Below are positions 1 to 10,770 of a stretch of 14,196 bases of DNA, piece by piece. Made by a program: the position numbers and the translations under genes. How positions within the stretch are numbered: the first letter of the stretch is position 1; every line of letters begins with the position of its first letter. This stretch comes from Cytophagales bacterium (GTDB lineage: Bacteria; Bacteroidota; Bacteroidia; Cytophagales; Cyclobacteriaceae), in assembly GCA_003500135.1 (NCBI GenBank), contig DNTA01000118.1, forward strand, positions 1 through 14,196. Reading direction: 5' to 3'. Under the pieces are notes generated by a model, which was not told where the DNA came from, did no database searches, and saw only the letters and a list, made by a program, of their open reading frames with translations.

Positions 1-422
1 TGTTAGGAACAGTTGCCCTTTTTTACGGATGTAATCCTGACGAAAAAATGGAAAGCCAAACAAGTGCAAATACCCTGATAATCAACTTGACCAGTGATGC
101 TACGGTAAATGCGCACGGTTCATTAATGGGCATCCACTTAGCTGAAAAAGCGCTCGAGAATAGGCTGGACGTGATAGTGTTTTTAAATGTCAATGGCGTA
201 AAATTGTTACAACCCGGAGCCGATACCCTCGCTTTTCATGGGGAAAAAATTTTGCAAGCCCTGGACAAGGTAGTGGAAAAAGGAGGCGACGTGAGGATAT
301 GTCCCCACTGTGCAGAAGCTTTAGGAATTGACAAAACACAGATTCCTGCCAATTTCAAAATGCAGGATGAGAAAATTATGATGGAAAAGCTCCGAAGCAA
401 TCCAACTGTATTTACTTATTAA
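1..422 (+). CDS. DsrE-like protein, probable lipoprotein; 5' end outside window
   Basis: The frame is open to the left edge. The first internal Met codon is at 48, but 15 sense codons precede it in frame and read LGTVALFYGC-NPDEK, which looks like the end of a lipoprotein signal peptide with the acylated Cys encoded at 30-32. The true start is therefore upstream of the window. The mature part resembles the DsrE/DsrF/peroxiredoxin-like fold: an alternating beta/alpha pattern, a conserved-looking VRICPHCAEALGI segment (codons near 294-332) with a CxxC pair, and the usual length of about 120 residues. DsrE-fold proteins commonly carry persulfide sulfur on a Cys. A membrane-anchored, periplasm-facing copy is less usual, since most are cytoplasmic. 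The gene is followed after 20 bp by a second lipoprotein gene, so the two are probably co-transcribed. Family assignment is by pattern recognition. The exact sulfur donor or acceptor cannot be read. Confidence 0.72.
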   Translation, partial: LGTVALFYGCNPDEKMESQTSANTLIINLTSDATVNAHGSLMGIHLAEKALENRLDVIVFLNVNGVKLLQPGADTLAFHGEKILQALDKVVEKGGDVRICPHCAEALGIDKTQIPANFKMQDEKIMMEKLRSNPTVFTY

Positions 423-1377: not shown

Positions 1378-2406
1378 ATGGAAGAAATCTATAAAATATT
1401 TCTAAAAGCCATCATGATAACCGGTTTTGTGTTCATTATGATGATAGTGGTTGAATACATAAATGTTCAGTCTAAAGGAGTATGGCAAAAACACTTAACC
1501 GGAAATATATTCAAACCATACTTCATTGCCGGATTACTGGGGGCTTTACCGGGTTGCCTGGGAGCTTTCACAGTGATTACTTTGTTCTCTCACAAATTGA
1601 TTTCATTTGGGGCTTTGGTTACAACTATGATAGCCACCAGTGGAGATGAAGCCTTTGTTATGTTTGCTATGTTCCCTAAACAAGCCATGATACTTACCAT
1701 TTTACTTATGGTTTTAGGGATTTTAGCAGGCTATTTAACAGATAAGTTTTACCACCCTAAACGCATTCTTGATCAAATTTCAGGACATAGTTTAATGTTG
1801 CATGAAGAGGAGTATTGTAAACACCCTCAACTAAATAGGTTTTGGAAAGATTCATTTCATCTTTCCCTTCCTCGAATATCTGTTGCGCTTGGCATAATTA
1901 CATTAATGGTCGGTGTCGTGACTGGTCTGCTTGCCGGAAACGCTGAAATGTGGGTCAAAGTAACTCTATTGGCAGCTTTTGCATTTGCCCTGTTTATAAT
2001 AGTTACTGTTCCTGATCACTTTCTAATAGAGCATGTCTGGAAACATATTGTAAAAGTTCATATGACACGAATTTTCTTATGGGTATATGGCATTCTGCTT
2101 ATTATGCATGTTGTGAACTTATATATCGATATAGAAAGTTGGATTTCCCATAACTTGTTAGTGATGTTGCTTATTGCCGTCTTTGTAGGTTTTATACCTG
2201 AATCAGGGCCTCATTTAATATTTGTAACACTTTTTGCGGCTGGCGCTATTCCGTTTAGTATTTTATTGGCCAGTTCAATTTCACAAGATGGACATGGTAT
2301 GTTACCCATGCTCGCCGAATCAAAAAAAGGGTTTGTAGCGGTTAAAATAATTAATATGATTTACGCATTAGTTATAGGAGGTATTAGTTTGAGCCTTGGA
2401 TTATAG
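1378..2406 (+). CDS. Putative 10-TM heavy-metal/manganese exporter (ArsP_2-like)
   Basis: The 342-residue integral membrane protein has about ten hydrophobic segments. It resembles the family called 'putative 10TM heavy-metal exporter' or 'putative manganese transporter' (ArsP_2). Two related halves are visible. The N-terminal half has GALPGCLGAF (55-64) followed by ATSGDEAF (86-93). The C-terminal half has GFIPESGPHL (271-280) followed by SQDGHGMLPMLAESKKGF (302-319). Acidic and polar residues inside membrane segments (D90, E91, E275, D304, E314) are plausible ion ligands. A His/Glu-rich cytoplasmic or periplasmic loop spans about 141-161. The protein probably exports a metal cation or metalloid; which one is not decidable here. 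The ATG at 1378 has no Shine-Dalgarno sequence. The gene stands alone between two gene-poor spacers and looks AT-richer than the minus-strand operon (about 33% GC in one sampled line here against 42-48% there). Confidence 0.72.
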   Translation: MEEIYKIFLKAIMITGFVFIMMIVVEYINVQSKGVWQKHLTGNIFKPYFIAGLLGALPGCLGAFTVITLFSHKLISFGALVTTMIATSGDEAFVMFAMFPKQAMILTILLMVLGILAGYLTDKFYHPKRILDQISGHSLMLHEEEYCKHPQLNRFWKDSFHLSLPRISVALGIITLMVGVVTGLLAGNAEMWVKVTLLAAFAFALFIIVTVPDHFLIEHVWKHIVKVHMTRIFLWVYGILLIMHVVNLYIDIESWISHNLLVMLLIAVFVGFIPESGPHLIFVTLFAAGAIPFSILLASSISQDGHGMLPMLAESKKGFVAVKIINMIYALVIGGISLSLGL

Positions 2407-2963: not shown

Positions 2964-3245
2964 TTAATAGTACTTTCCAATATTCCTTTTCGTGCGAAAA
3001 AAGCGGTACAGCCCTATTGAAAATGCAATAGGTGATGCAATTAATGCGGCATAGCCCAGCTCCTGAATTTCGGCAAAGAAACTTAACTTAATCAAAGTAA
3101 TCCCTGTGCCCAGTAACACGAGGGTAGTTCGCAGATAGGATAAAAAAGTGCGCTCATTTGCCAGTTTCGTTCGCTCAATTGCCAGCCAGTCACGAAGTAT
3201 CAAATCATTTTTTGAAGGGTTTTCCTTTGTCGACATCTCATCCAT
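2964..3245 (-). CDS. DUF202-family small membrane protein (YidH-like)
   Basis: The product is about 93 residues if it starts at the ATG at 3245. The diagnostic segment is LANERTFLSYLRTTL (28-42), typical of DUF202 proteins, followed by two membrane helices (about 40-58 and 64-80) and a basic tail RFFRTKRNIGKYY. The frame stays open upstream to an ATG at 3305, but those 20 extra residues (VTFRVPGAFPAILF and onward) do not look like this family, so I prefer 3245; ATGs at 3260 and 3236 are alternatives. The biochemical role of DUF202 is not known. It is the last gene of the minus-strand sulfur cluster, 147 bp after the short YeeE half, a wider gap than elsewhere in the operon. Confidence 0.75.
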   Translation of the reverse strand: MDEMSTKENPSKNDLILRDWLAIERTKLANERTFLSYLRTTLVLLGTGITLIKLSFFAEIQELGYAALIASPIAFSIGLYRFFRTKRNIGKYY

Positions 3246-3392
3246 ATTTTTTGTAAACATAAAAAGAATAGCCGGAAAAGCGCCGGGTACCCGAAAGGTG
3301 ACCATGTTGTATGAAAACTGAATTGGGACGGCACCCGGTAACTTATTCCTGCCCTTTTTTGCTCCCTCTTTGCAAAATATTTTTTTAAATGA

Positions 3393-3806
3393 TTAATGAG
3401 GTAGTTTGGCACGAACCAACCCATAGGTGAAGGTTCCGGCTACCGCGCCGAAGATCACTACCCATATCACATCTACGCCATGCCCGGCAAGCACAAACAT
3501 CGGGCCCGGACAAGCGCCGGTGAGCGCCCAGCCCAAACCGAATATAATGCCGCCAATCAGGTACCGGGGAATACTTTTATTTTTGGGGTTGAAACGAATC
3601 TCTACCCCTTCGATTGAACGCAGACGTTTTCTTTTGATCACCTGCACAATAATGATCCCCAGCACAATGGCTGAACCAATAATCCCATACATGTGAAAAG
3701 AACCAAACCTGAACATCTCGTAGATCCGGTACCATGAAACAATCTCGGCCATACTCATGACCATGCCAAACAAAATGCCAATTAATAAATATCTGAAGAA
3801 ATTCAT
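3393..3806 (-). CDS. Short YeeE/YedE-type half transporter (DUF6691-like)
   Basis: The 137-residue membrane protein has about four hydrophobic segments. The key motif is FGLGWALTGACPGP (89-102) with Cys99, the half-motif of the YeeE/YedE (sulf_transp) superfamily. Full-length YeeE/TsuA proteins import thiosulfate using conserved membrane Cys residues. Here the transporter is split into two short proteins, and this is the C-terminal-type half, of the kind listed as DUF6691. Its usual partner, the other half, lies two genes upstream. It starts 3 bp after the stop codon of the porin gene, so coupled translation is likely. It should sit in the inner membrane and move thiosulfate or another sulfur species, possibly as a heteromer. 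The substrate is inferred from the family only. Confidence 0.85.
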   Translation of the reverse strand: MNFFRYLLIGILFGMVMSMAEIVSWYRIYEMFRFGSFHMYGIIGSAIVLGIIIVQVIKRKRLRSIEGVEIRFNPKNKSIPRYLIGGIIFGLGWALTGACPGPMFVLAGHGVDVIWVVIFGAVAGTFTYGLVRAKLPH

Positions 3807-3809
3807 GTT

Positions 3810-5177
3810 CTAAATTTTATAATCGATAAATAACATTAAGTGCGTAAAGTTGAACCTGTTGTACACCAACGTAGGTTCATAAACCGCATCACCTGCCTGA
3901 AAGGTGCCGGCGTATAAAAACCGGACTTTTGCGCCTTCGAACAAGCCCTTGAGCTTATAGCGAATATTGAAATTCACCTGGTGGAAATCGGGGTACCGGA
4001 ATTTGTTCAAAGCAATCTGATCAATACCAGGTGTATCCATGAATCCATAATCGACCTCTATTCCCAGGTTATCCGCTTTCTCCGGGTGCCACTCTGTTTT
4101 CAGCACGTAGGAATAAGAATCTCCCTGTCCGTCCAGTCGGTATCGAGAGAAAAAGTTGTAGAAGTCGACCGTGCCAAATTCACGAGGGAACACAAAACGT
4201 CCCGACGAAGTGATCCGCGTGAGGTTACCACTGACTGCTATGTGGCCATCATCGTACTCCACTTTCCCGGCCATTAAATTGGTTTGTTGTCCCGGATCGT
4301 AGTAGGTCCGTTCGAGGTCACCATTACCGCCCTTATGAAGCCCCCACTGTCCAAGGTATTGCAATCCGCCTGTCCAGAAACCGTGGTGATACTCCGTTTG
4401 TAAAAGGGCTGTATTCATCACATTGTCGATGGCAGCATCCCATATTTTAAAATCCCAGTGGGCATTGGGTTTAATATCCACACCAATAACACCGATGCCG
4501 GCACTTCTCAGATTACCTTTATAGCCTGAGTTTGTACCCAGCGTGTTATATCCGCGCCCAAACAAACCAATGCTTTCTTCAATGGTGTACCAGTCGCGCA
4601 CACCTCTCGGCGAAGACTTGACCAGCCAGCCGCCCTGCACATGCCAGATACTTGTTTGATAGTGTGCCCATAAACCTTCGAAGGCAGTCGTCTTCATACG
4701 TGAATCCTGAGCATTGAGCAGAGGAGTATTTAAATTCAGCCTTCCTCCCTGCAGCCTCATATTTTTATATTGATACTGCAGATAAAACATTTCCAGAAAG
4801 CTGATATTATAGCGGTTAGACTTATCGGTCACGTCGAATAACTGTGATTCAAAGCGATTCCCTTTCCCCACTACCGGGTCGAGGTAGGTCAGGTCAGCGC
4901 TTCCCATATTAAACGAAGCACCTCCACCCATTCCGAAGCTAAAGCCATGCCAGCTACCCGATTGCCAGTATACCCTGGCACCCAGCGCATTGGCCCAGAA
5001 ATCAGATAAGTCGCCTTCATTAAAAGTAGCAAATGTAGCCCAGCGGATATTACCGCTGAAGTTACCATCCGCTATTACATCGCGTATATGCTGTTTTTCA
5101 GTGCTGTCACCGGCGTTAACCCCGCTGATCCAGACGGTCATCACAATAATTAAAAGCAGTGTATACCGGGCTGCCAT
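3810..5177 (-). CDS. OprD-like outer-membrane porin
   Basis: The 455-residue protein has a Sec signal peptide (residues 1-22, ending SGVNA), a mature start GDSTEKQ, and alternating aromatic/polar beta strands through to the C-terminus FNFTHLMLFIDYKI, as expected of an outer-membrane beta barrel. Early segments such as NFSGNIRWATFATF and FWANALGARVYWQSG, then MRLQGGRLNLNTPLL and FEGLWAHYQ, resemble OprD/OprD-like porins in order and spacing, and the length fits. It would let a small anionic or organic solute through the outer membrane. It sits between the two YeeE halves with 5 bp on one side and 3 bp on the other, so it is almost certainly co-transcribed and likely serves the same substrate. 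The exact porin subfamily is uncertain; a generic Bacteroidota barrel is the alternative. Confidence 0.7.
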   Translation of the reverse strand: MAARYTLLLIIVMTVWISGVNAGDSTEKQHIRDVIADGNFSGNIRWATFATFNEGDLSDFWANALGARVYWQSGSWHGFSFGMGGGASFNMGSADLTYLDPVVGKGNRFESQLFDVTDKSNRYNISFLEMFYLQYQYKNMRLQGGRLNLNTPLLNAQDSRMKTTAFEGLWAHYQTSIWHVQGGWLVKSSPRGVRDWYTIEESIGLFGRGYNTLGTNSGYKGNLRSAGIGVIGVDIKPNAHWDFKIWDAAIDNVMNTALLQTEYHHGFWTGGLQYLGQWGLHKGGNGDLERTYYDPGQQTNLMAGKVEYDDGHIAVSGNLTRITSSGRFVFPREFGTVDFYNFFSRYRLDGQGDSYSYVLKTEWHPEKADNLGIEVDYGFMDTPGIDQIALNKFRYPDFHQVNFNIRYKLKGLFEGAKVRFLYAGTFQAGDAVYEPTLVYNRFNFTHLMLFIDYKI

Positions 5178-5182
5178 TCTTA

Positions 5183-5749
5183 TTACGCGCTAAAAATCAG
5201 TGGCAACACCACGTAAGTCATAAAAAGACCACCAATAAAAAACCCTACCACAGCCAGCAATGAAGGCCATTGAAGGTCGCTCAATCCGCTTATGGCATGT
5301 CCGCTGGTACATCCTCCGGCATATCTGGCCCCGAAGCCAATCATAAAGCCTCCTCCAATCAGCACCAGTACGCCCTGCCACGAGAATAAAGTATCCCAAC
5401 TGAATATCCGGGAAGGGTAAAACTCTTCTCCGGCTTTATCAAAGCCCATCGCCTTCAAATCCTGCACAACTGCCGGAGCCAGCTCTACTGCCGATTGTTC
5501 GAGCAGGTACTTATGGGATATATAGCCCCCGATTATGGCTCCTAATACAAATACCAGGTTCCACGACTGTGCCTGCCAGTTAAAATTGAAAAAGTCGGAC
5601 CACCTGCCGGCACCACCAATCGAACACATGGTTCTCAGATTGGCCGATACGCCAAAGTTTTTGCCCGTATATAGCAATAAAAACATAATCAAAGCCAGTA
5701 TGGGCCCGGCAACATACCATGGCCATGGCTGTGAAATAAACTCTATCAT
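5183..5749 (-). CDS. YeeE/YedE-family sulfur transporter, first half
   Basis: The 188-residue inner-membrane protein has four to five hydrophobic segments. Two family hallmarks are visible: NLRTMCSIGGAG (37-48) with Cys42, and IGFGARYAGGCTSGHAISGLSDLQ within 137-160, containing Cys147. The second is the classic sulf_transp (YeeE/YedE) motif. In thiosulfate importers of this family, conserved Cys residues relay the substrate through the membrane. This protein and the short half downstream together provide three such Cys residues (C42, C147 and C99 of the partner). It is shorter than full-length YeeE (about 350 residues), which fits a split transporter. It follows the universal stress gene by 30 bp and precedes the porin gene by 5 bp. 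Confidence 0.88.
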   Translation of the reverse strand: MIEFISQPWPWYVAGPILALIMFLLLYTGKNFGVSANLRTMCSIGGAGRWSDFFNFNWQAQSWNLVFVLGAIIGGYISHKYLLEQSAVELAPAVVQDLKAMGFDKAGEEFYPSRIFSWDTLFSWQGVLVLIGGGFMIGFGARYAGGCTSGHAISGLSDLQWPSLLAVVGFFIGGLFMTYVVLPLIFSA

Positions 5750-5779
5750 AATGCTCTCAATTCCAGTTTTTGTTGTTGA

Positions 5780-6613
5780 TTAAATTTTATAAGTCAGAAT
5801 AGGCATATACACGTGGTTCACGATATCTTCCGTGATACTTCCCCGCAGCCAATGGCTTATGCCTTTTCTTCCGTGTGTACCAATGGCCACAATATCAATG
5901 GCATTTTCCTGTGCATAATGCACAATACCATCTTCCACACTTTTGTCGCAGTAGATGTTGTAAGTCACATTGTTGAGCTCATGGTCACGTGCAAACTGCT
6001 TCATCTCCTCCATCGCTTCATGATTGGTACAGAAGTCGCGCTCGGTATTGACTTTGAGCAAATGTATGGCCGCACCGGTATTCTGCTGCAGCTTCTTTAC
6101 CATTTGCAGATTTTGCTTTTTATGTTCAGTGAAATTGCTTGGCAACAGAATGTTGCGCACCTTCATTTGTGACCGGTCGCACTTAAGCGTAAGTACAGGC
6201 GCTTCGGCATTTCGAACGATGCGCTCGGTGTGTGAGCCGCTGATGAGTTCTTTGAATCCGGTAGCGCCATGTGTACCCATTACCACAAGATCAATATCGT
6301 GCTTCTCCACATATTTTAGTATGTTATCCGTAAGGTGGCCAATCTGTACGATACCATGTGGATTGCCCGGTTTGTTGCCCAACCACGCCTCCATTTGTTC
6401 TTCTGCTTTTTTAGCTTCCTCTTTCAGGGGTTTCACATCGTACTCCGTACAATCCAGCAGGTTGCCTTCTTTATCAAAGAGCGTCTCTCCCGGAGCTTCC
6501 ACAACTTTCAACGAATGAATTTCTGTGGAATCATTTTCTGACACCAGGCTGGCCAGGTTAAAAGCGTAGTCGGCCAGTTCGGAATAATCCGTTGGCACTA
6601 ATATCTTCTTCAT
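5780..6613 (-). CDS. Tandem-domain universal stress protein (UspA family)
   Basis: The 277-residue protein has two Usp domains, about 1-147 and 152-277. Each starts with the typical beta strand (MKKILVPTDYSE; VRNILLPSNFTE) and each ends with the ATP-binding motif G-x2-G-x9-G-S: GTHGATGFKELISGS (113-127) and GTHGRKGISHWLRGS (245-259). Both sites look intact, so ATP binding is likely. I chose the ATG at 6613, which gives the canonical N-terminus; a TTG four codons upstream is possible but adds nothing. Such proteins are cytoplasmic stress or regulatory factors. Next to sulfur and anion transport genes this one may sense energy state or modulate the transporters (inference). A 177-bp gap containing a large hairpin separates it from the MBL-rhodanese gene, and the next YeeE gene follows 30 bp downstream. 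Confidence 0.92.
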   Translation of the reverse strand: MKKILVPTDYSELADYAFNLASLVSENDSTEIHSLKVVEAPGETLFDKEGNLLDCTEYDVKPLKEEAKKAEEQMEAWLGNKPGNPHGIVQIGHLTDNILKYVEKHDIDLVVMGTHGATGFKELISGSHTERIVRNAEAPVLTLKCDRSQMKVRNILLPSNFTEHKKQNLQMVKKLQQNTGAAIHLLKVNTERDFCTNHEAMEEMKQFARDHELNNVTYNIYCDKSVEDGIVHYAQENAIDIVAIGTHGRKGISHWLRGSITEDIVNHVYMPILTYKI

Positions 6614-6707
6614 ATGTAAATCCAAATTATACTACCGAAGCTTCTGTTTTATTTCTTTTTCAAAAACAAGAACTGGAAGCACTCCGGTAAATTGTTAATG
6701 TTAAGTA

Positions 6708-6747
6708 CAAATGCCGACAGGGATTTTCTAAGTCCCTGCGACATTTG
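6708..6747 (-). ncRNA. Large intergenic hairpin between MBL-rhodanese and Usp genes
   Basis: The segment CAAATG (6708-6713) pairs with CATTTG (6742-6747), CG with CG after one mismatch, and CAGGGA (6718-6723) with TCCCTG (6733-6738), with a single bulged A. It lies 44 bp after the MBL-rhodanese stop codon. No T-tract follows on the minus strand, so a classical terminator is unlikely. An mRNA-processing or stability hairpin that tunes the upstream genes against the downstream ones fits better. The feature type is a best fit, as no RNA family is recognised. Confidence 0.45.
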
Positions 6748-6790
6748 AAAATTGTAAACCAATTAACTTAAACTACCAGCGAATGAAATA

Positions 6791-8200
6791 TTACTTGAGT
6801 GTCGAAGGACAAACATAGTCCGTTTTAGGCACTTCCGTTTTAGCTATCGCCGAAAATCCTCCAGCCACGTCGGTGATGTCATGGATACCTCGCGACTTCA
6901 GTATCGATGCCATGATCATAGAGCGGTAACCGCCTGCACAATGCAGGTAATAGTGCTTTTCATTGTCTATTTTGTCCATATTCTCATTGATGAAATCCAA
7001 CGGAATATTTTCTGCATCTTCCACGTGTTCTGCCTGGAATTCGCTAGGCTTACGCACATCCATCACATTAATCTTGCCGGCATTAAACCTTCCGGCAAAC
7101 TCCGTAGCCGGAATTGATTCCACTGAATCAGTTTCTTTTCCTGCTTCGATCCATGTTTCGATGCCTCCTTCAAGGTAGCCAAGTGTGTTGTCATAACCCA
7201 CACGGGCCAGTCGCGTTACGATCTCTTCCTCACGACCGTGCTCAGCCACAATAATGATTGGCTGGTTCAGGTCGGGAATCAAAGCACCTACCCATGGGGC
7301 AAAGCTACCGTCGATACCTATGAAGATTGAATTAGGTATGTGTGCCTCTGCAAAAGCTGCCGGCTGCCGTGTGTCGAGTACAATGGCGCCTTCATGATTG
7401 GCCATCGCCTCAAATGTTTCGACATTCAATGGTACCGTACCTTTTTCCAGTACGCTGTCAATGCTATCATATCCTGTTTTATTGATCATGGCATTCTTTG
7501 CGAAGTACTGAGGAGGAGGAAGAATACCTTCTGTCACTTCCTTAATAAATTCCTCTTTGCTCATATCGGCACGCAAGGCGTAGTTCGTCTTCTTTTGGTT
7601 ACCCAGAAGGTCCGTGGTTTCCTTGCTCATATTCTTACCACATGCTGATCCGGCACCGTGAGCAGGATACACGACTACATCATCTGGCAAGGTCATGATC
7701 TTGGTACGAAGGCTTTCATACAGCATGCCTGCCAGATCTTCCCTGCTCAGGTCTGACTTCACAGCAAGGTCAGGTCGACCAACATCGCCAATAAATAAAG
7801 TATCACCACTGAAGATCGCATGCTCTTTTCCGTTTTCATCGATCAAAAGATAGGTAGAGCTTTCCGGCGTATGGCCTGGCGTGTGCAATACTTTGATCTG
7901 CACTTTACCTAAATGGAATACTTCGCCATCTTTCGCTTCATGAATATCATATTCTGTTTTTGCGCCCGGCCCATACACGATCTTGGCGCCGGTTTTTGCC
8001 GCCAGATCAACGTGACCTGATACAAAATCGGCATGGAAGTGCGTTTCGAAAATGTATTTGATCTTCGAACCGTTTTCTTTTGCACGTTGCTGATAAGGCG
8101 CAGTTTCGCGCAATGGATCGATAATCGCTACTTCTCCGTCACTTTCGATGTAATAGGCTCCCTGAGCCAGACATCCGGTATAGATTTGTTCAATTTTCAT
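6791..8200 (-). CDS. Metallo-beta-lactamase/double-rhodanese protein (persulfide dioxygenase-rhodanese type)
   Basis: The 469-residue protein has three domains. The MBL domain (1-~240) carries THFHADFVSGH (53-63), H110 in HTPGH, D133 in SGDTLF and H181 in YPAHGAGSACGK. This is the pattern of ETHE1/persulfide dioxygenases, which use one iron held by two His and an Asp (here H54, H110, D133) to oxidise glutathione or other persulfide to sulfite. Rhodanese domain 1 (about 255-355) has VLDTRQPAAF, but its active loop reads AEHGREE with no Cys, so it is probably inactive. Rhodanese domain 2 (about 365-455) has VMDVRKPSEF and an intact Cys loop CAGGYRS (C421). The tail DYVCPSTLK adds a second candidate sulfur-carrying Cys, C464. 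The enzyme is cytoplasmic. It starts 35 bp after the SulP gene and has a real Shine-Dalgarno sequence (AAGGAG, 8204-8209), unusual in this window. Confidence 0.9.
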   Translation of the reverse strand: MKIEQIYTGCLAQGAYYIESDGEVAIIDPLRETAPYQQRAKENGSKIKYIFETHFHADFVSGHVDLAAKTGAKIVYGPGAKTEYDIHEAKDGEVFHLGKVQIKVLHTPGHTPESSTYLLIDENGKEHAIFSGDTLFIGDVGRPDLAVKSDLSREDLAGMLYESLRTKIMTLPDDVVVYPAHGAGSACGKNMSKETTDLLGNQKKTNYALRADMSKEEFIKEVTEGILPPPQYFAKNAMINKTGYDSIDSVLEKGTVPLNVETFEAMANHEGAIVLDTRQPAAFAEAHIPNSIFIGIDGSFAPWVGALIPDLNQPIIIVAEHGREEEIVTRLARVGYDNTLGYLEGGIETWIEAGKETDSVESIPATEFAGRFNAGKINVMDVRKPSEFQAEHVEDAENIPLDFINENMDKIDNEKHYYLHCAGGYRSMIMASILKSRGIHDITDVAGGFSAIAKTEVPKTDYVCPSTLK

Positions 8201-8203
8201 ATT

Positions 8204-8209
8204 ACTCCT
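8204..8209 (-). promoter_or_regulatory. Shine-Dalgarno sequence of the MBL-rhodanese gene
   Basis: AAGGAG lies on the minus strand four bases before the ATG at 8200. Other genes here lack a clear ribosome-binding site, so this suggests relatively strong translation of the enzyme and confirms its start. Confidence 0.6.
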
Positions 8210-8235
8210 TTTTTATTTTCTATTATTTGGTTTTA

Positions 8236-9993
8236 CTATTTTGATTCCTGAGTCGTCAATCTGTTGTATTGTGTGCTCATATCTACATTCTCTTCATTTC
8301 TGATTTTTTCTTCATTGTTCTTTTCATAGTGAGCCACTGCATCGGCCACATGCATGAAGAAATTGGATTTTCCAATCAGGTCCACCAGGCCATCCTGCAT
8401 CATTTTATCACGTACCGGACCTTTTACGCCGGCCACATAAAATTCAATCCCTCTATTATGGTAGTCGACTACTACATCGTGCAACTGATGAAGGGCCGAG
8501 CTGTCAATTCCGTTGATGGCTGCCGCATTGAGCACGACCACCTTTAGTTTATCCCCCTTTTCCAATTCCATTTTTTGTAGTTTGTCCCTGAGGTAACCAA
8601 TGTTGGCAAAGAACAGCTGGGCATCAAACCGGGCAATCAGCATATCCTCCCGCTGATCGGCATCCGGAAATCTTTTGACATTTCTGTAGTAATTGGTGCC
8701 CGGTAGTCGACCCAATTGCGCCATATGTGGGTAGGCAGCCCGATAGACCACCATCACCAATGAAAGTGCCACACCTATAATAATACCCTGTTCGATACCC
8801 ATAGTTAAAGTGGCAATAAATGTTACCGCCAACATGGCAAAATCACGTTTGTCTGATTTCCATAGATGTTTCGCCTCTTTTATATCAATAAGTCCGAATA
8901 CAGCCACCATGATCACTGAGGCCAGCACGGCCTTAGGCAAATAGTAGAATAGTGGCGTAAGGAAGATCAGCGTAAGCAGGATCAATACCGCGCTGATGAT
9001 CGATGCCAGTCCGGTTTTGGCGCCAGCCTGATCATTAACCGCCGTTCTGGAGAATCCTCCCGTGGTGGGAAAAGAGCTAAAGAATGCTCCACCGATATTG
9101 GCAACACCCAGGGCTATCAATTCCTGGTTGGAATCGACCTGATAATTCTTGTGCTTGGCCTGTATCGCTTTTGCTACGGCAATAGATTCCATAAAACCTA
9201 CCAGTGCAATGGTAAGTGCAATGGGAAGCAGGGCTTTCAGATCACCCATTTCAAAACCCGGAAAGTGAAAAGGAGGCAATCCTTCCGGCACTTCCTTAAC
9301 TATTTTCATCCCTCCCTTGTCCAAGCCGAAAAAATAAACTACCAAAATACTCAATACCACTACTACCAGCGGACCAGGTACCGGCCATTTCAGTTTCTTG
9401 ATCGTTAGGATAAGAGCAATTGCAGTTGCCCCTAATACAAATGTTGCGATGTGCACATCGCCAAGGTGCGTTCCTGCGTTGATCAAAATTTCGTGAATGA
9501 AATTGCTACGTGGAATATCGATGCCCAGCAAATGCTTCAGCTGGCTCAAACCAATGATCAAAGCCGCCGCTGAGGTAAATCCACTAATGACCGGATGCGA
9601 CAAAAAGTTGACCAAAAAACCCAAACGGAACAAGCCGAGACTGAATTGCATAACGCCAACCATTAATGCAAGTAAAATGGCCAGTGCGATGTAGTTTTCC
9701 GATTGATATGCTGCCAATTGACTAACGCCAGTGGCGATCAAGAGCGCCACCATGGCCACCGGTCCCACGGCTAATTGCCTGGATGTCCCAAAGAGGGCAT
9801 ATAAAATAAGTGGTATGGTTGAAGCGTATAATCCATAAATAGGTGGTAATCCGGCCAACATGGCATAAGCCATTCCCTGCGGAATTAACATCACACCTAC
9901 CGTAAGTCCGGCGGCCAGATCGTTTTTAAAGAGCCTTGCATTATAGTTTTCCAGGGCTCCAACTAAAGGCACATGTCGCTTAATGAAATTCAT
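8236..9993 (-). CDS. SulP-family anion permease with C-terminal STAS domain
   Basis: The 585-residue protein has the SulP/SLC26 layout. The membrane domain covers about 1-430, with the family signature DLAAGLTVGVMLIPQGMAYA starting near residue 25, then GLPPIYGLYAS, TSRQLAVGPVA and a second half containing GGAFFSSFPTTGGFSRTAVN. A STAS domain follows at about 449-560, with NGIDSSALHQL around S498/S499, the usual regulatory or phosphorylation-type loop. The length is normal. SulP proteins move sulfate, bicarbonate or other anions across the inner membrane. Placed first in a cluster with a persulfide dioxygenase, it may handle sulfate or sulfite, but bicarbonate cannot be excluded. The downstream enzyme gene begins 35 bp later. 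A Bacteroidota -7 box lies 37 bp upstream of the start. Confidence 0.92.
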   Translation of the reverse strand: MNFIKRHVPLVGALENYNARLFKNDLAAGLTVGVMLIPQGMAYAMLAGLPPIYGLYASTIPLILYALFGTSRQLAVGPVAMVALLIATGVSQLAAYQSENYIALAILLALMVGVMQFSLGLFRLGFLVNFLSHPVISGFTSAAALIIGLSQLKHLLGIDIPRSNFIHEILINAGTHLGDVHIATFVLGATAIALILTIKKLKWPVPGPLVVVVLSILVVYFFGLDKGGMKIVKEVPEGLPPFHFPGFEMGDLKALLPIALTIALVGFMESIAVAKAIQAKHKNYQVDSNQELIALGVANIGGAFFSSFPTTGGFSRTAVNDQAGAKTGLASIISAVLILLTLIFLTPLFYYLPKAVLASVIMVAVFGLIDIKEAKHLWKSDKRDFAMLAVTFIATLTMGIEQGIIIGVALSLVMVVYRAAYPHMAQLGRLPGTNYYRNVKRFPDADQREDMLIARFDAQLFFANIGYLRDKLQKMELEKGDKLKVVVLNAAAINGIDSSALHQLHDVVVDYHNRGIEFYVAGVKGPVRDKMMQDGLVDLIGKSNFFMHVADAVAHYEKNNEEKIRNEENVDMSTQYNRLTTQESK

Positions 9994-10030: not shown

Positions 10031-10038
10031 CAAAAGTA
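10031..10038 (-). promoter_or_regulatory. Bacteroidota -7 box upstream of the SulP operon
   Basis: On the minus strand the box reads TACTTTTG, a perfect match to TAnnTTTG, 37 bp before the SulP ATG. No TTTG lies 18-20 bp upstream; that place holds an imperfect TGTG-N10-CACA dyad (10058-10075) that could bind an activator. The same 10-mer TACTTTTGTA recurs in the rhodanese promoter. Confidence 0.5.
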
Positions 10039-10434: not shown

Positions 10435-10740
10435 CTAGTCGATAATTCTACCGGTAAAGCTTCCCACGCGCTTCCAACCGCCACCATTCACTGCCTCAAT
10501 ACCGGCGTTTTCCAGTATTTTAAGCGCTTTACCTGCGCGCATTCCCGACCGGCAACACAATATGACCGGCCTGCCTTTCTTCTTTAATAACTTTGTTCGC
10601 GCTTCTATGATATTCATGGGCATATTTACGGCGCCTTTGGCGTGTGCCTGCTTAAATTCAGCAGGTGTGCGCACATCCACTATGATCGCGTCGCGCTCCA
10701 GGAATTTTTTTATGTTTTTATTTCTAAACCAACCGAACAT
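10435..10740 (-). CDS. Single-domain rhodanese (sulfurtransferase)
   Basis: The 101-residue protein is one complete rhodanese domain. IIVDVRTPAEFKQAHAKGAVNMP (19-41) is the typical first half, and VILCCRSGMRAGKA (59-72) carries the catalytic Cys loop C63-R-S-G-M-R, with an adjacent Cys62. GGGWKRV near the C-terminus matches the family. It has no signal peptide, so it is cytoplasmic. It would take sulfane sulfur from thiosulfate or a persulfide and pass it on. It has its own promoter with a perfect dyad over the -7 box, so it is a separate transcription unit but probably part of the same sulfur response as the operon 441 bp downstream. The start ATG at 10740 gives the expected N-terminus, though no Shine-Dalgarno sequence is seen. 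Confidence 0.92.
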   Translation of the reverse strand: MFGWFRNKNIKKFLERDAIIVDVRTPAEFKQAHAKGAVNMPMNIIEARTKLLKKKGRPVILCCRSGMRAGKALKILENAGIEAVNGGGWKRVGSFTGRIID

Positions 10741-10752
10741 ATCTTTGAATTT

Positions 10753-10770
10753 TGATTACAAAAGTAATCA
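10753..10770. promoter_or_regulatory. Perfect dyad overlapping the rhodanese -7 box (candidate operator)
   Basis: TGATTAC-aaaa-GTAATCA has perfect 7-bp arms around four bases. It fully covers the -7 box and the likely transcription start, the classic place for a repressor. The regulator is not in the window. A sulfide- or persulfide-responsive repressor is an inference from the gene it controls. Confidence 0.5.

What the first reader, a model, noticed from the sequence alone, without database searches (positions are those of the whole stretch)
2964..9993. Seven-gene sulfur-handling operon with a porin embedded between the two halves of a split YeeE transporter
Seen: SulP, MBL-Rhd-Rhd, tandem Usp, YeeE half, OprD-like porin, short YeeE half and DUF202 all run in one direction, and the porin is joined to both YeeE halves by 5 and 3 bp. 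Known: YeeE/YedE proteins carry thiosulfate or other sulfur species, ETHE1-like MBL enzymes oxidise persulfides, rhodaneses transfer sulfane sulfur, and SulP moves sulfate-like anions. Inference: this is an envelope-spanning route that imports a sulfur compound through a dedicated porin plus a split Cys-relay transporter, detoxifies or oxidises it inside, and exports or balances the oxyanion. The porin inside the split transporter is the unusual part and suggests an obligate functional link. DUF202 and Usp would be unassigned accessory parts.
Basis: partly seen in the sequence, partly recalled or inferred. Interest (0 to 1): 0.7.

Follow-up and report, generated by a model that had tools for sequence, protein, structure and literature searches.

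The report
Sulfur-uptake operon with embedded porin
This operon places an outer-membrane channel gene between the two genes of an inner-membrane sulfur transporter, an arrangement kept in distantly related Bacteroidota, and the channel's relatives often lie beside thiosulfate-oxidising enzymes, so it is probably the outer-membrane door for thiosulfate or a similar sulfur compound.

Summary
In detail: seven genes at the stated places, all on the minus strand, with the porin 5 and 3 bp from the two YeeE genes. It is not a one-genome oddity. YeeE_N–porin–YeeE_C recurs in 10 other genomes or contigs found here, two of them with a broken porin. The 10 embedded porins that entered the tree, the window's included, fall in one clade of 18. 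The porin is an 18-strand OprD/Occ-type barrel. Its homologues sit near the YeeE pair, a persulfide-dioxygenase/rhodanese gene and a TsdA-like thiosulfate dehydrogenase: 43 of 51 places in a first sample and 33 of 42 in a second had YeeE or TsdA nearby, nearly always on the same strand. Best explanation: a dedicated outer-membrane channel for thiosulfate or related sulfane-sulfur anions, serving a PmpAB/YedE1E2-type two-gene transporter. An 'obligate link' is not supported: 67 of 80 similar named YeeE loci lack the porin. 'Split' is probably the wrong word, since two-gene YeeE transporters are known. Substrate and direction are inferred; the window's own clade has no TsdA neighbour. New variant of a known kind.

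The parts
10031..10038 (-). candidate -7 element of a Bacteroidota promoter (TACTTTTG, fits the recalled TAnnTTTG) upstream of SulP
   Evidence: Read directly in the sequence; the consensus is recalled, not tested
8236..9993 (-). SulP-family anion transporter with STAS domain
   Evidence: PF00916 E 2.3e-127; STAS E 8.2e-18; TIGR00815 551.6 bits, above its cut-off
6791..8200 (-). MBL-rhodanese-rhodanese protein, CstB-like persulfide dioxygenase/sulfurtransferase; first rhodanese has no Cys at the aligned active-site place, second has HCAGGYR
   Evidence: matches over nearly the full length to 3tp9 E 3.9e-73 and 3r2u E 4.5e-57
6626..6790 (-). intergenic stretch between MBL and Usp that folds strongly as RNA; possible attenuator or processing site
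   Evidence: MFE -44 kcal/mol, z -4.26, 0 of 200 shuffles as low
5780..6625 (-). tandem universal stress protein (likely start ATG at 6613)
   Evidence: PF00582 E 1e-38, 2 stretches. A similar Usp lies directly upstream of YeeE_N in 0 of 31 first-sample, 11 of 30 second-sample and 2 of 80 named YeeE_N genes
5183..5749 (-). YeeE_N: larger gene of the YeeE pair (188 aa); GGCTSGH Cys aligns with TsuA Cys293
3810..5177 (-). OprD/Occ-type outer-membrane porin with an N-terminal signal-like helix and an 18-strand barrel
3393..3806 (-). YeeE_C (DUF6691-like, 137 aa); GACPGP Cys aligns with TsuA Cys91
2964..3305 (-). DUF202 membrane protein, accessory; a DUF202 match was seen near 2 of the 10 other embedded loci (L203, L269)
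   Evidence: (E 3.4e-15)

Best explanation
The locus is a Bacteroidota sulfane-sulfur/thiosulfate module spanning both membranes. The OprD-like porin lets thiosulfate (or a close relative such as tetrathionate or polysulfide) cross the outer membrane. YeeE_N and YeeE_C form the inner-membrane transporter, each supplying one of the two relay cysteines, and bring thiosulfate or its sulfane sulfur into the cytoplasm. The CstB-like MBL-Rhd-Rhd enzyme oxidises or transfers that sulfur, and SulP balances the resulting oxyanion. In many relatives the same porin family follows a periplasmic TsdA-type thiosulfate dehydrogenase; in the window's clade no TsdA lies nearby and the porin gene sits between the two YeeE genes, where gaps of a few bases probably couple its expression to theirs. 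Shown here: gene content, order, predicted fold, recurrence, one porin clade. Inferred: substrate, direction, single transcript, stoichiometry.
For: (1) Porin homologues and sulfur genes. First sample: 43 of 51 places have YeeE or TsdA on the fetched stretch, 36 of 51 within 1 kb; same strand for 33 of 33 YeeE_N, 28 of 28 TsdA, 30 of 30 MBL/rhodanese matches. Second sample, 42 places from 41 further genomes found with a porin profile only (A4, built from five embedded porins): 33 of 42 within 8 kb, 24 of 42 within 1 kb; same strand 29 of 30, 26 of 27, 31 of 33. (2) The one TsdA-like neighbour tested against solved structures matches TsdA (4wqc, E 2e-43); 7 of 7 neighbours aligned keep two CxxCH motifs and the Cys of DCFERS/GCMERS. 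(3) Embedded order in 11 cases including the window; in six other cases the junctions are -4 to 12 bp by mechanical ORF starts (stop codon added). (4) Of 140 YeeE pairs measured, 129 have their genes within 250 bp, one at 681 bp, and the 10 above 1 kb all hold this porin. (5) Both YeeE proteins align with TsuA at its Cys91 and Cys293. (6) Published YedE1E2 takes up zero-valent sulfur and TsuA thiosulfate (passages). (7) A SoxB-like gene lies directly upstream of the porin in L191.
Against: No transport, expression or phenotype data. Both samples contain related genomes, so the counts are not independent events. The own genome has no close TsdA (only E 5.2e-4), so the thiosulfate argument for this porin is indirect; 0 of the 18 porins of its clade has TsdA nearby and 7 of the 18 have neither YeeE nor TsdA nearby (some stretches are cut by contig ends). 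8 of 51 and 9 of 42 porins lack both genes on the fetched stretch. Two embedded porins are broken (L204, L100); in L100 YeeE_N has an internal stop too. Porins of the OprD fold carry many other small molecules (recalled).
Confidence: 0.62

Rival explanations
1. Export/detoxification: the CstB-like enzyme makes thiosulfate or sulfite inside; the YeeE pair or SulP passes it to the periplasm, and the porin lets it (or TsdA-made tetrathionate) out of the cell.
For: PDO operons are described as sulfide detoxification (PMC7315123 passages); porins are passive, so genes alone do not fix direction; SulP and MBL are in the operon.
Against: Characterised YeeE-family members import (TsuA, YedE1E2, SoxT; passages).
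Confidence: 0.2
2. The porin is a general nutrient channel that merely sits in a sulfur-responsive operon; the gene between the YeeE genes is a fossil of an old insertion with no functional tie.
For: A broken porin between uninterrupted YeeE genes (L204) and a locus with both porin and YeeE_N interrupted (L100); 67 of 80 named YeeE_N loci have no such porin on the fetched DNA; 7 of 18 clade members lie apart from YeeE and TsdA.
Against: Association with two different sulfur modules (YeeE, TsdA) in two samples, strand almost always shared; the embedded order is kept among porins only 26 to 39% identical to the window's (four others aligned).
Confidence: 0.15
3. Porin and YeeE pair serve zero-valent sulfur or polysulfide rather than thiosulfate.
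For: YedE1E2 takes up zero-valent sulfur (PMC10812762); OprD-like porins are proposed for S0/polysulfide uptake in Sulfurovum (PMC10045233); a porin beside YeeE/YedE is proposed for polysulfide import in Desulfurivibrio (PMC12142623).
Against: Frequent TsdA neighbour, a thiosulfate/tetrathionate enzyme, although not in the window's clade.
Confidence: 0.25

Closest known systems
PmpAB / YedE1E2 two-gene YeeE transporters in yeeE-yedE-pdo2 operons
   Same: Two small YeeE proteins, together supplying the cysteines aligned to TsuA Cys91 and Cys293, with a persulfide-dioxygenase-like gene in the same cluster.
   Different: Here the larger subunit has about 188 aa with an extra invariant Cys (position 41 in A2 numbering, 19 of 19 rows), against about 130 aa for PmpA; a porin gene lies between the subunits. 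A BigR-type regulator was not searched for.
TsuA (YeeE) thiosulfate transporter, PDB 6leo
   Same: Same family and relay cysteines.
   Different: TsuA is one chain of about 339 aa, here two chains; the residue aligned with TsuA Cys22 in YeeE_C is not Cys.
CstB of Staphylococcus aureus (that 3r2u is CstB is recalled)
   Same: PDO, rhodanese without the Cys, rhodanese with it, aligned over nearly the full length.
   Different: Different partners: none of the 15 window proteins scanned with Pfam is TauE or SQR.
OprD/Occ porins (OccK, OccD, BenF-like)
   Different: Only 12-16% identity in the structural alignments; sulfur-gene neighbourhood instead of the carboxylate or amino-acid uptake known for Occ porins (recalled).
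TsdA thiosulfate dehydrogenase with an adjacent porin of this family
   Same: A TsdA-like gene lies within 50 bp on the same strand in 16 of 51 and 10 of 42 porin places, upstream in 25 of the 26.
   Different: The window has no TsdA.
Porin co-localised with YeeE/YedE in Desulfurivibrio dismutans (PMC12142623)
   Same: Authors propose the porin for polysulfide import across the outer membrane (passage).
   Different: Different phylum, one genome; I did not compare its sequence.

Membership tests
Two-gene YeeE (PmpAB/YedE1E2) transporter | Two small Sulf_transp proteins, one matching each half of TsuA | tested here: met
   YeeE_C matches TsuA 6-111, YeeE_N matches 276-328
Two-gene YeeE (PmpAB/YedE1E2) transporter | Conserved Cys equivalent to TsuA Cys91 and Cys293 | tested here: met
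   C146 (A2 numbering) of YeeE_N and C99 of YeeE_C invariant in 19 of 19 and 18 of 18 rows
Two-gene YeeE (PmpAB/YedE1E2) transporter | The two genes are contiguous | tested here: not met
   Porin gene of 1368 bp between them; 129 of 140 other pairs are within 250 bp
Two-gene YeeE (PmpAB/YedE1E2) transporter | Transports thiosulfate or zero-valent sulfur | not testable with these tools
   No assay; the YeeE_N model was too poor to use (pLDDT 61.8, pTM 0.43)
OprD/Occ porin | 18-stranded barrel of the Occ fold | tested here: met
   (a predicted model)
OprD/Occ porin | Pfam OprD gathering score | tested here: not met
   22.1 bits against 25 for the window protein; the four other proteins found are listed with PF03573
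OprD/Occ porin | Basic ladder lining the pore | not tested
   Seven basic and six acidic residues are invariant or nearly so in A1, but no model coordinates were at hand to see which line the pore
CstB-type persulfide dioxygenase-sulfurtransferase | PDO domain, Cys-less rhodanese, Cys-bearing rhodanese in one chain | tested here: met
CstB-type persulfide dioxygenase-sulfurtransferase | Turns persulfide into thiosulfate | not testable with these tools
   No assay
TsdA-porin module | TsdA-like gene beside the porin | tested here: not met
   None among the window genes scanned; own genome only E 5.2e-4; genome 94% complete

The most novel reading that the evidence does not exclude
The porin and the YeeE pair are made together because they form one trans-envelope assembly: a substrate-specific outer-membrane channel docked on the inner-membrane Cys-relay transporter, so that sulfane sulfur or thiosulfate passes without release into the periplasm, replacing the periplasmic TsdA step of related loci.
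Probability: 0.08. Interest if true: 0.85.

Novelty: new variant of a known kind. Interest (0 to 1): 0.58.

Why it matters
How thiosulfate and other sulfane-sulfur anions cross the outer membrane is little studied, to my knowledge; the papers I looked into mostly treat the inner membrane. A porin family whose neighbours are the YeeE pair, TsdA and a persulfide dioxygenase gives a concrete, testable candidate in Bacteroidota. It also gives a cluster signature (MBL, Usp, YeeE_N, YeeE_C, TsdA, porin, and the embedded variant) for recognising thiosulfate or sulfane-sulfur handling in heterotrophs.

Tried and rejected
The search for related loci with the porin alone found no relative in genome contigs; the porin is too divergent for exact patterns, so the genome search was used. 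The search for homologous proteins gave only 5 hits each time, which I put down to the word filter, not to rarity. A structure of YeeE_N was predicted but was too weak for a fold search, so the idea that YeeE_N supplies the helix missing from PmpAB was dropped. The idea that the embedded order is unique to this genome was rejected. The idea that it arose many times was not supported: the 10 embedded porins in the tree sit in one clade, but they are mixed there with 7 unlinked porins and 1 more distant one, so moves or losses are needed, and the label needs at least 5 changes on supported branches (quick tree, LG+G4, SH-aLRT only). The smaller 63-row C20 tree agrees (clade of 10, 6 of them embedded, support 99). 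The sigma-70 and terminator scan gave no more promoter-like sites than shuffles (32 against mean 35.3) and 16 terminator-like sites against 13.2, so it says nothing on operon boundaries.

L188's nearest YeeE_N match is a weak piece (34 bits) inside a TsdA-like ORF, and L191 holds DNA the operators withhold; both loci were kept. First-sample MBL counts include weak rhodanese-only matches; second-sample counts need 100 bits. Some stretches end at contig ends. Porin pieces under 800 bp (the two of L100, one place of L172, L258, L282) were left out of the trees; L204 is in by its main piece. Pairs of YeeE genes further than 3 kb apart were not counted. The promoter coordinates were also mended.
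Full report
What is there. YeeE_N ends 5 bp before the porin, and the porin 3 bp before YeeE_C. That the organism is a Bacteroidota is inferred from its nearest named YeeE_N matches, which are Bacteroidota by their titles.

The YeeE pair. YeeE_C matches TsuA residues 6-111 and YeeE_N residues 276-328, with cysteines at the places of TsuA Cys91 and Cys293, the two that PMC11582611 calls indispensable (passages read). That paper also proposes that PmpA and PmpB act as a heterodimer and that the two-gene form preceded the fused one. 'Split transporter' is therefore better read as 'two-gene transporter'. YedE1E2, the same kind of pair, took up zero-valent sulfur, and 177 of 212 yedE1E2-bearing bacteria had pdo genes (PMC10812762, passages). 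A yeeE-yedE-pdo2 operon is known in Acinetobacter (PMC7315123, passages). The MBL-Rhd-Rhd protein has the CstB layout over nearly its full length, with no Cys at the aligned place in the first rhodanese and one in the second (that 3r2u is CstB is recalled).

Is the embedded porin peculiar to this genome? No. Porin homologues were found in 24 of 59 relatives, 22 of 395 genomes of a phylum sample (alike) and 52 of 345 of a class sample; these tallies include the window's genome and overlap in part. Around the 51 non-own places have YeeE or TsdA on the fetched stretch, 36 within 1 kb, and 45 have YeeE, TsdA, MBL or SulP; the remaining six have none. YeeE_N was on the porin's strand in 33 of 33, TsdA in 28 of 28, MBL/rhodanese in 30 of 30. 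A second set, 42 places in the 41 genomes not seen before, found by a porin profile alone, gave YeeE or TsdA within 8 kb in 33 of 42, and YeeE, TsdA or MBL in 37 of 42; same strand 29 of 30, 26 of 27 and 31 of 33. As rough arithmetic, a genome of about 4 Mb with one or two YeeE_N genes would place a random gene that close in about 1% of cases or fewer; related genomes are not independent, so I give no probability.

Orders. Of 103 porins in the tree, 44 lie downstream of a YeeE pair (many as YeeE_N-YeeE_C-TsdA-porin, some preceded by MBL and Usp, as in L252, L257, L274), 15 directly upstream of YeeE_N (often MBL-porin-YeeE_N-YeeE_C), 15 beside TsdA without YeeE, 10 embedded, 16 with neither, 3 other. 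Named examples (for porin, YeeE and MBL; for TsdA) are Fulvivirga marina L090, Marinoscillum L084 and Brumimicrobium oceani L150 (L150 without TsdA). The embedded order YeeE_N-porin-YeeE_C occurs in the window and L163, L203, L204, L267, L269, L275, L279 (8 of 94 porin places, window included), and in 3 of 80 named YeeE_N loci (L100 Euzebyella marina, L101, L137). L267 also has Usp directly upstream, as in the window. By mechanical ORF starts the junctions of L163, L203, L101, L137, L267 and L269 range from -4 to 12 bp (stop codon added); L275 and L279 overlap. In L204 the porin is broken into pieces while the YeeE genes are not; in L100 both the porin and YeeE_N are interrupted, from decay or sequencing error. 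Of 140 same-strand YeeE pairs, 129 are within 250 bp, one at 681 bp, and all ten wider ones hold this porin.

Origin. In the tree of 103 porins all ten embedded rows fall in one clade of 18 (SH-aLRT 98), with 7 unlinked rows and 1 more distant one; the smaller 63-row tree agrees (clade of 10, support 99). None of the 18 has TsdA on the stretch examined. The simplest reading is an old feature of one porin clade, later lost or moved in some members, rather than a recent accident; the tree does not prove a single origin.

Why thiosulfate. The gene next to many other porins of the family is TsdA-like: the L206 neighbour matches solved thiosulfate dehydrogenase 4wqc at E 2e-43 over 199 residues; seven aligned neighbours keep two CxxCH motifs and the Cys of the DCFERS/GCMERS motif (that this Cys is a haem ligand is recalled). 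NCBIfam gave no family above its cut-off for these seven. A TsdA-like gene lies within 50 bp of the porin in 16 of 51 and 10 of 42 places. In L191 a SoxB-like protein (TIGR04486 251 bits, below its cut-off of 550) is encoded directly upstream of the porin. The same porin family thus accompanies two thiosulfate or sulfane-sulfur machines, which is the basis for naming the substrate. Against: the window's own genome shows no TsdA-like match better than E 5.2e-4, so for this clade the substrate is inferred from kin.

How it probably works. Porin across the outer membrane, YeeE pair across the inner, CstB-like enzyme inside, SulP for the product. The last step, the direction and a single transcript are inference. 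The 165 bases between MBL and Usp fold far better than shuffles (z -4.26), so the operon may be two units or be processed there. The link is not obligate: 67 of 80 named YeeE_N loci have no such porin on the fetched DNA, and this genome has a second MBL-YeeE_N-YeeE_C locus (L209, on a contig that ends about 400 bases later) but only one porin of this family.

Prior art. None of the papers listed by my searches that I looked into describes this porin with YeeE or TsdA in Bacteroidota (most listings were capped at 15 to 20 titles, and the library lacks most subscription papers). Related proposals exist: a porin co-localised with sulfurtransferases and YeeE/YedE in Desulfurivibrio dismutans (PMC12142623, passages) and OprD-like porins in S0 uptake in Sulfurovum (PMC10045233, passages). 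So the idea of a sulfur porin is not new; the conserved Bacteroidota family, its TsdA link and the embedded order appear to be.

Noticed in passing
window 6626-6790 (-): Intergenic stretch between MBL and Usp folds strongly as RNA (z -4.26); possible attenuator, processing site or small RNA.
   Followed up: partly
window 48-422 (+): DsrE/DsrF-like protein (PF02635, E 2.5e-7), a possible sulfur-relay protein at the window edge on the other strand.
   Followed up: partly
window 10435-10740 (-): Single-domain rhodanese (E 6.7e-14) upstream of the operon, with a TACTTTTG promoter-like element of its own (10759-10766).
   Followed up: no
window 1378-2406 (+): ArsP_2-type exporter (NF037962 arsenic efflux, 140 bits, above its cut-off of 100).
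   Followed up: no
YeeE_N, window 5183-5749: An extra Cys (position 41 in A2 numbering) is invariant in 19 of 19 rows, beyond the one conserved Cys reported for PmpA-type proteins.
   Followed up: no
L195:7036-7995: A porin of this family directly precedes a YeiH-like putative sulfate exporter (TIGR00698 108 bits, below its cut-off), followed by a TsdA-like gene.
   Followed up: partly
L204 and L100: Embedded porin in pieces: in L204 between uninterrupted YeeE genes, in L100 next to a YeeE_N that has an internal stop. Decay or sequencing error.
   Followed up: partly
L199:9870-10550: The only other wide YeeE_N-YeeE_C gap (681 bp) seen in 140 pairs; its content was not identified.
   Followed up: no
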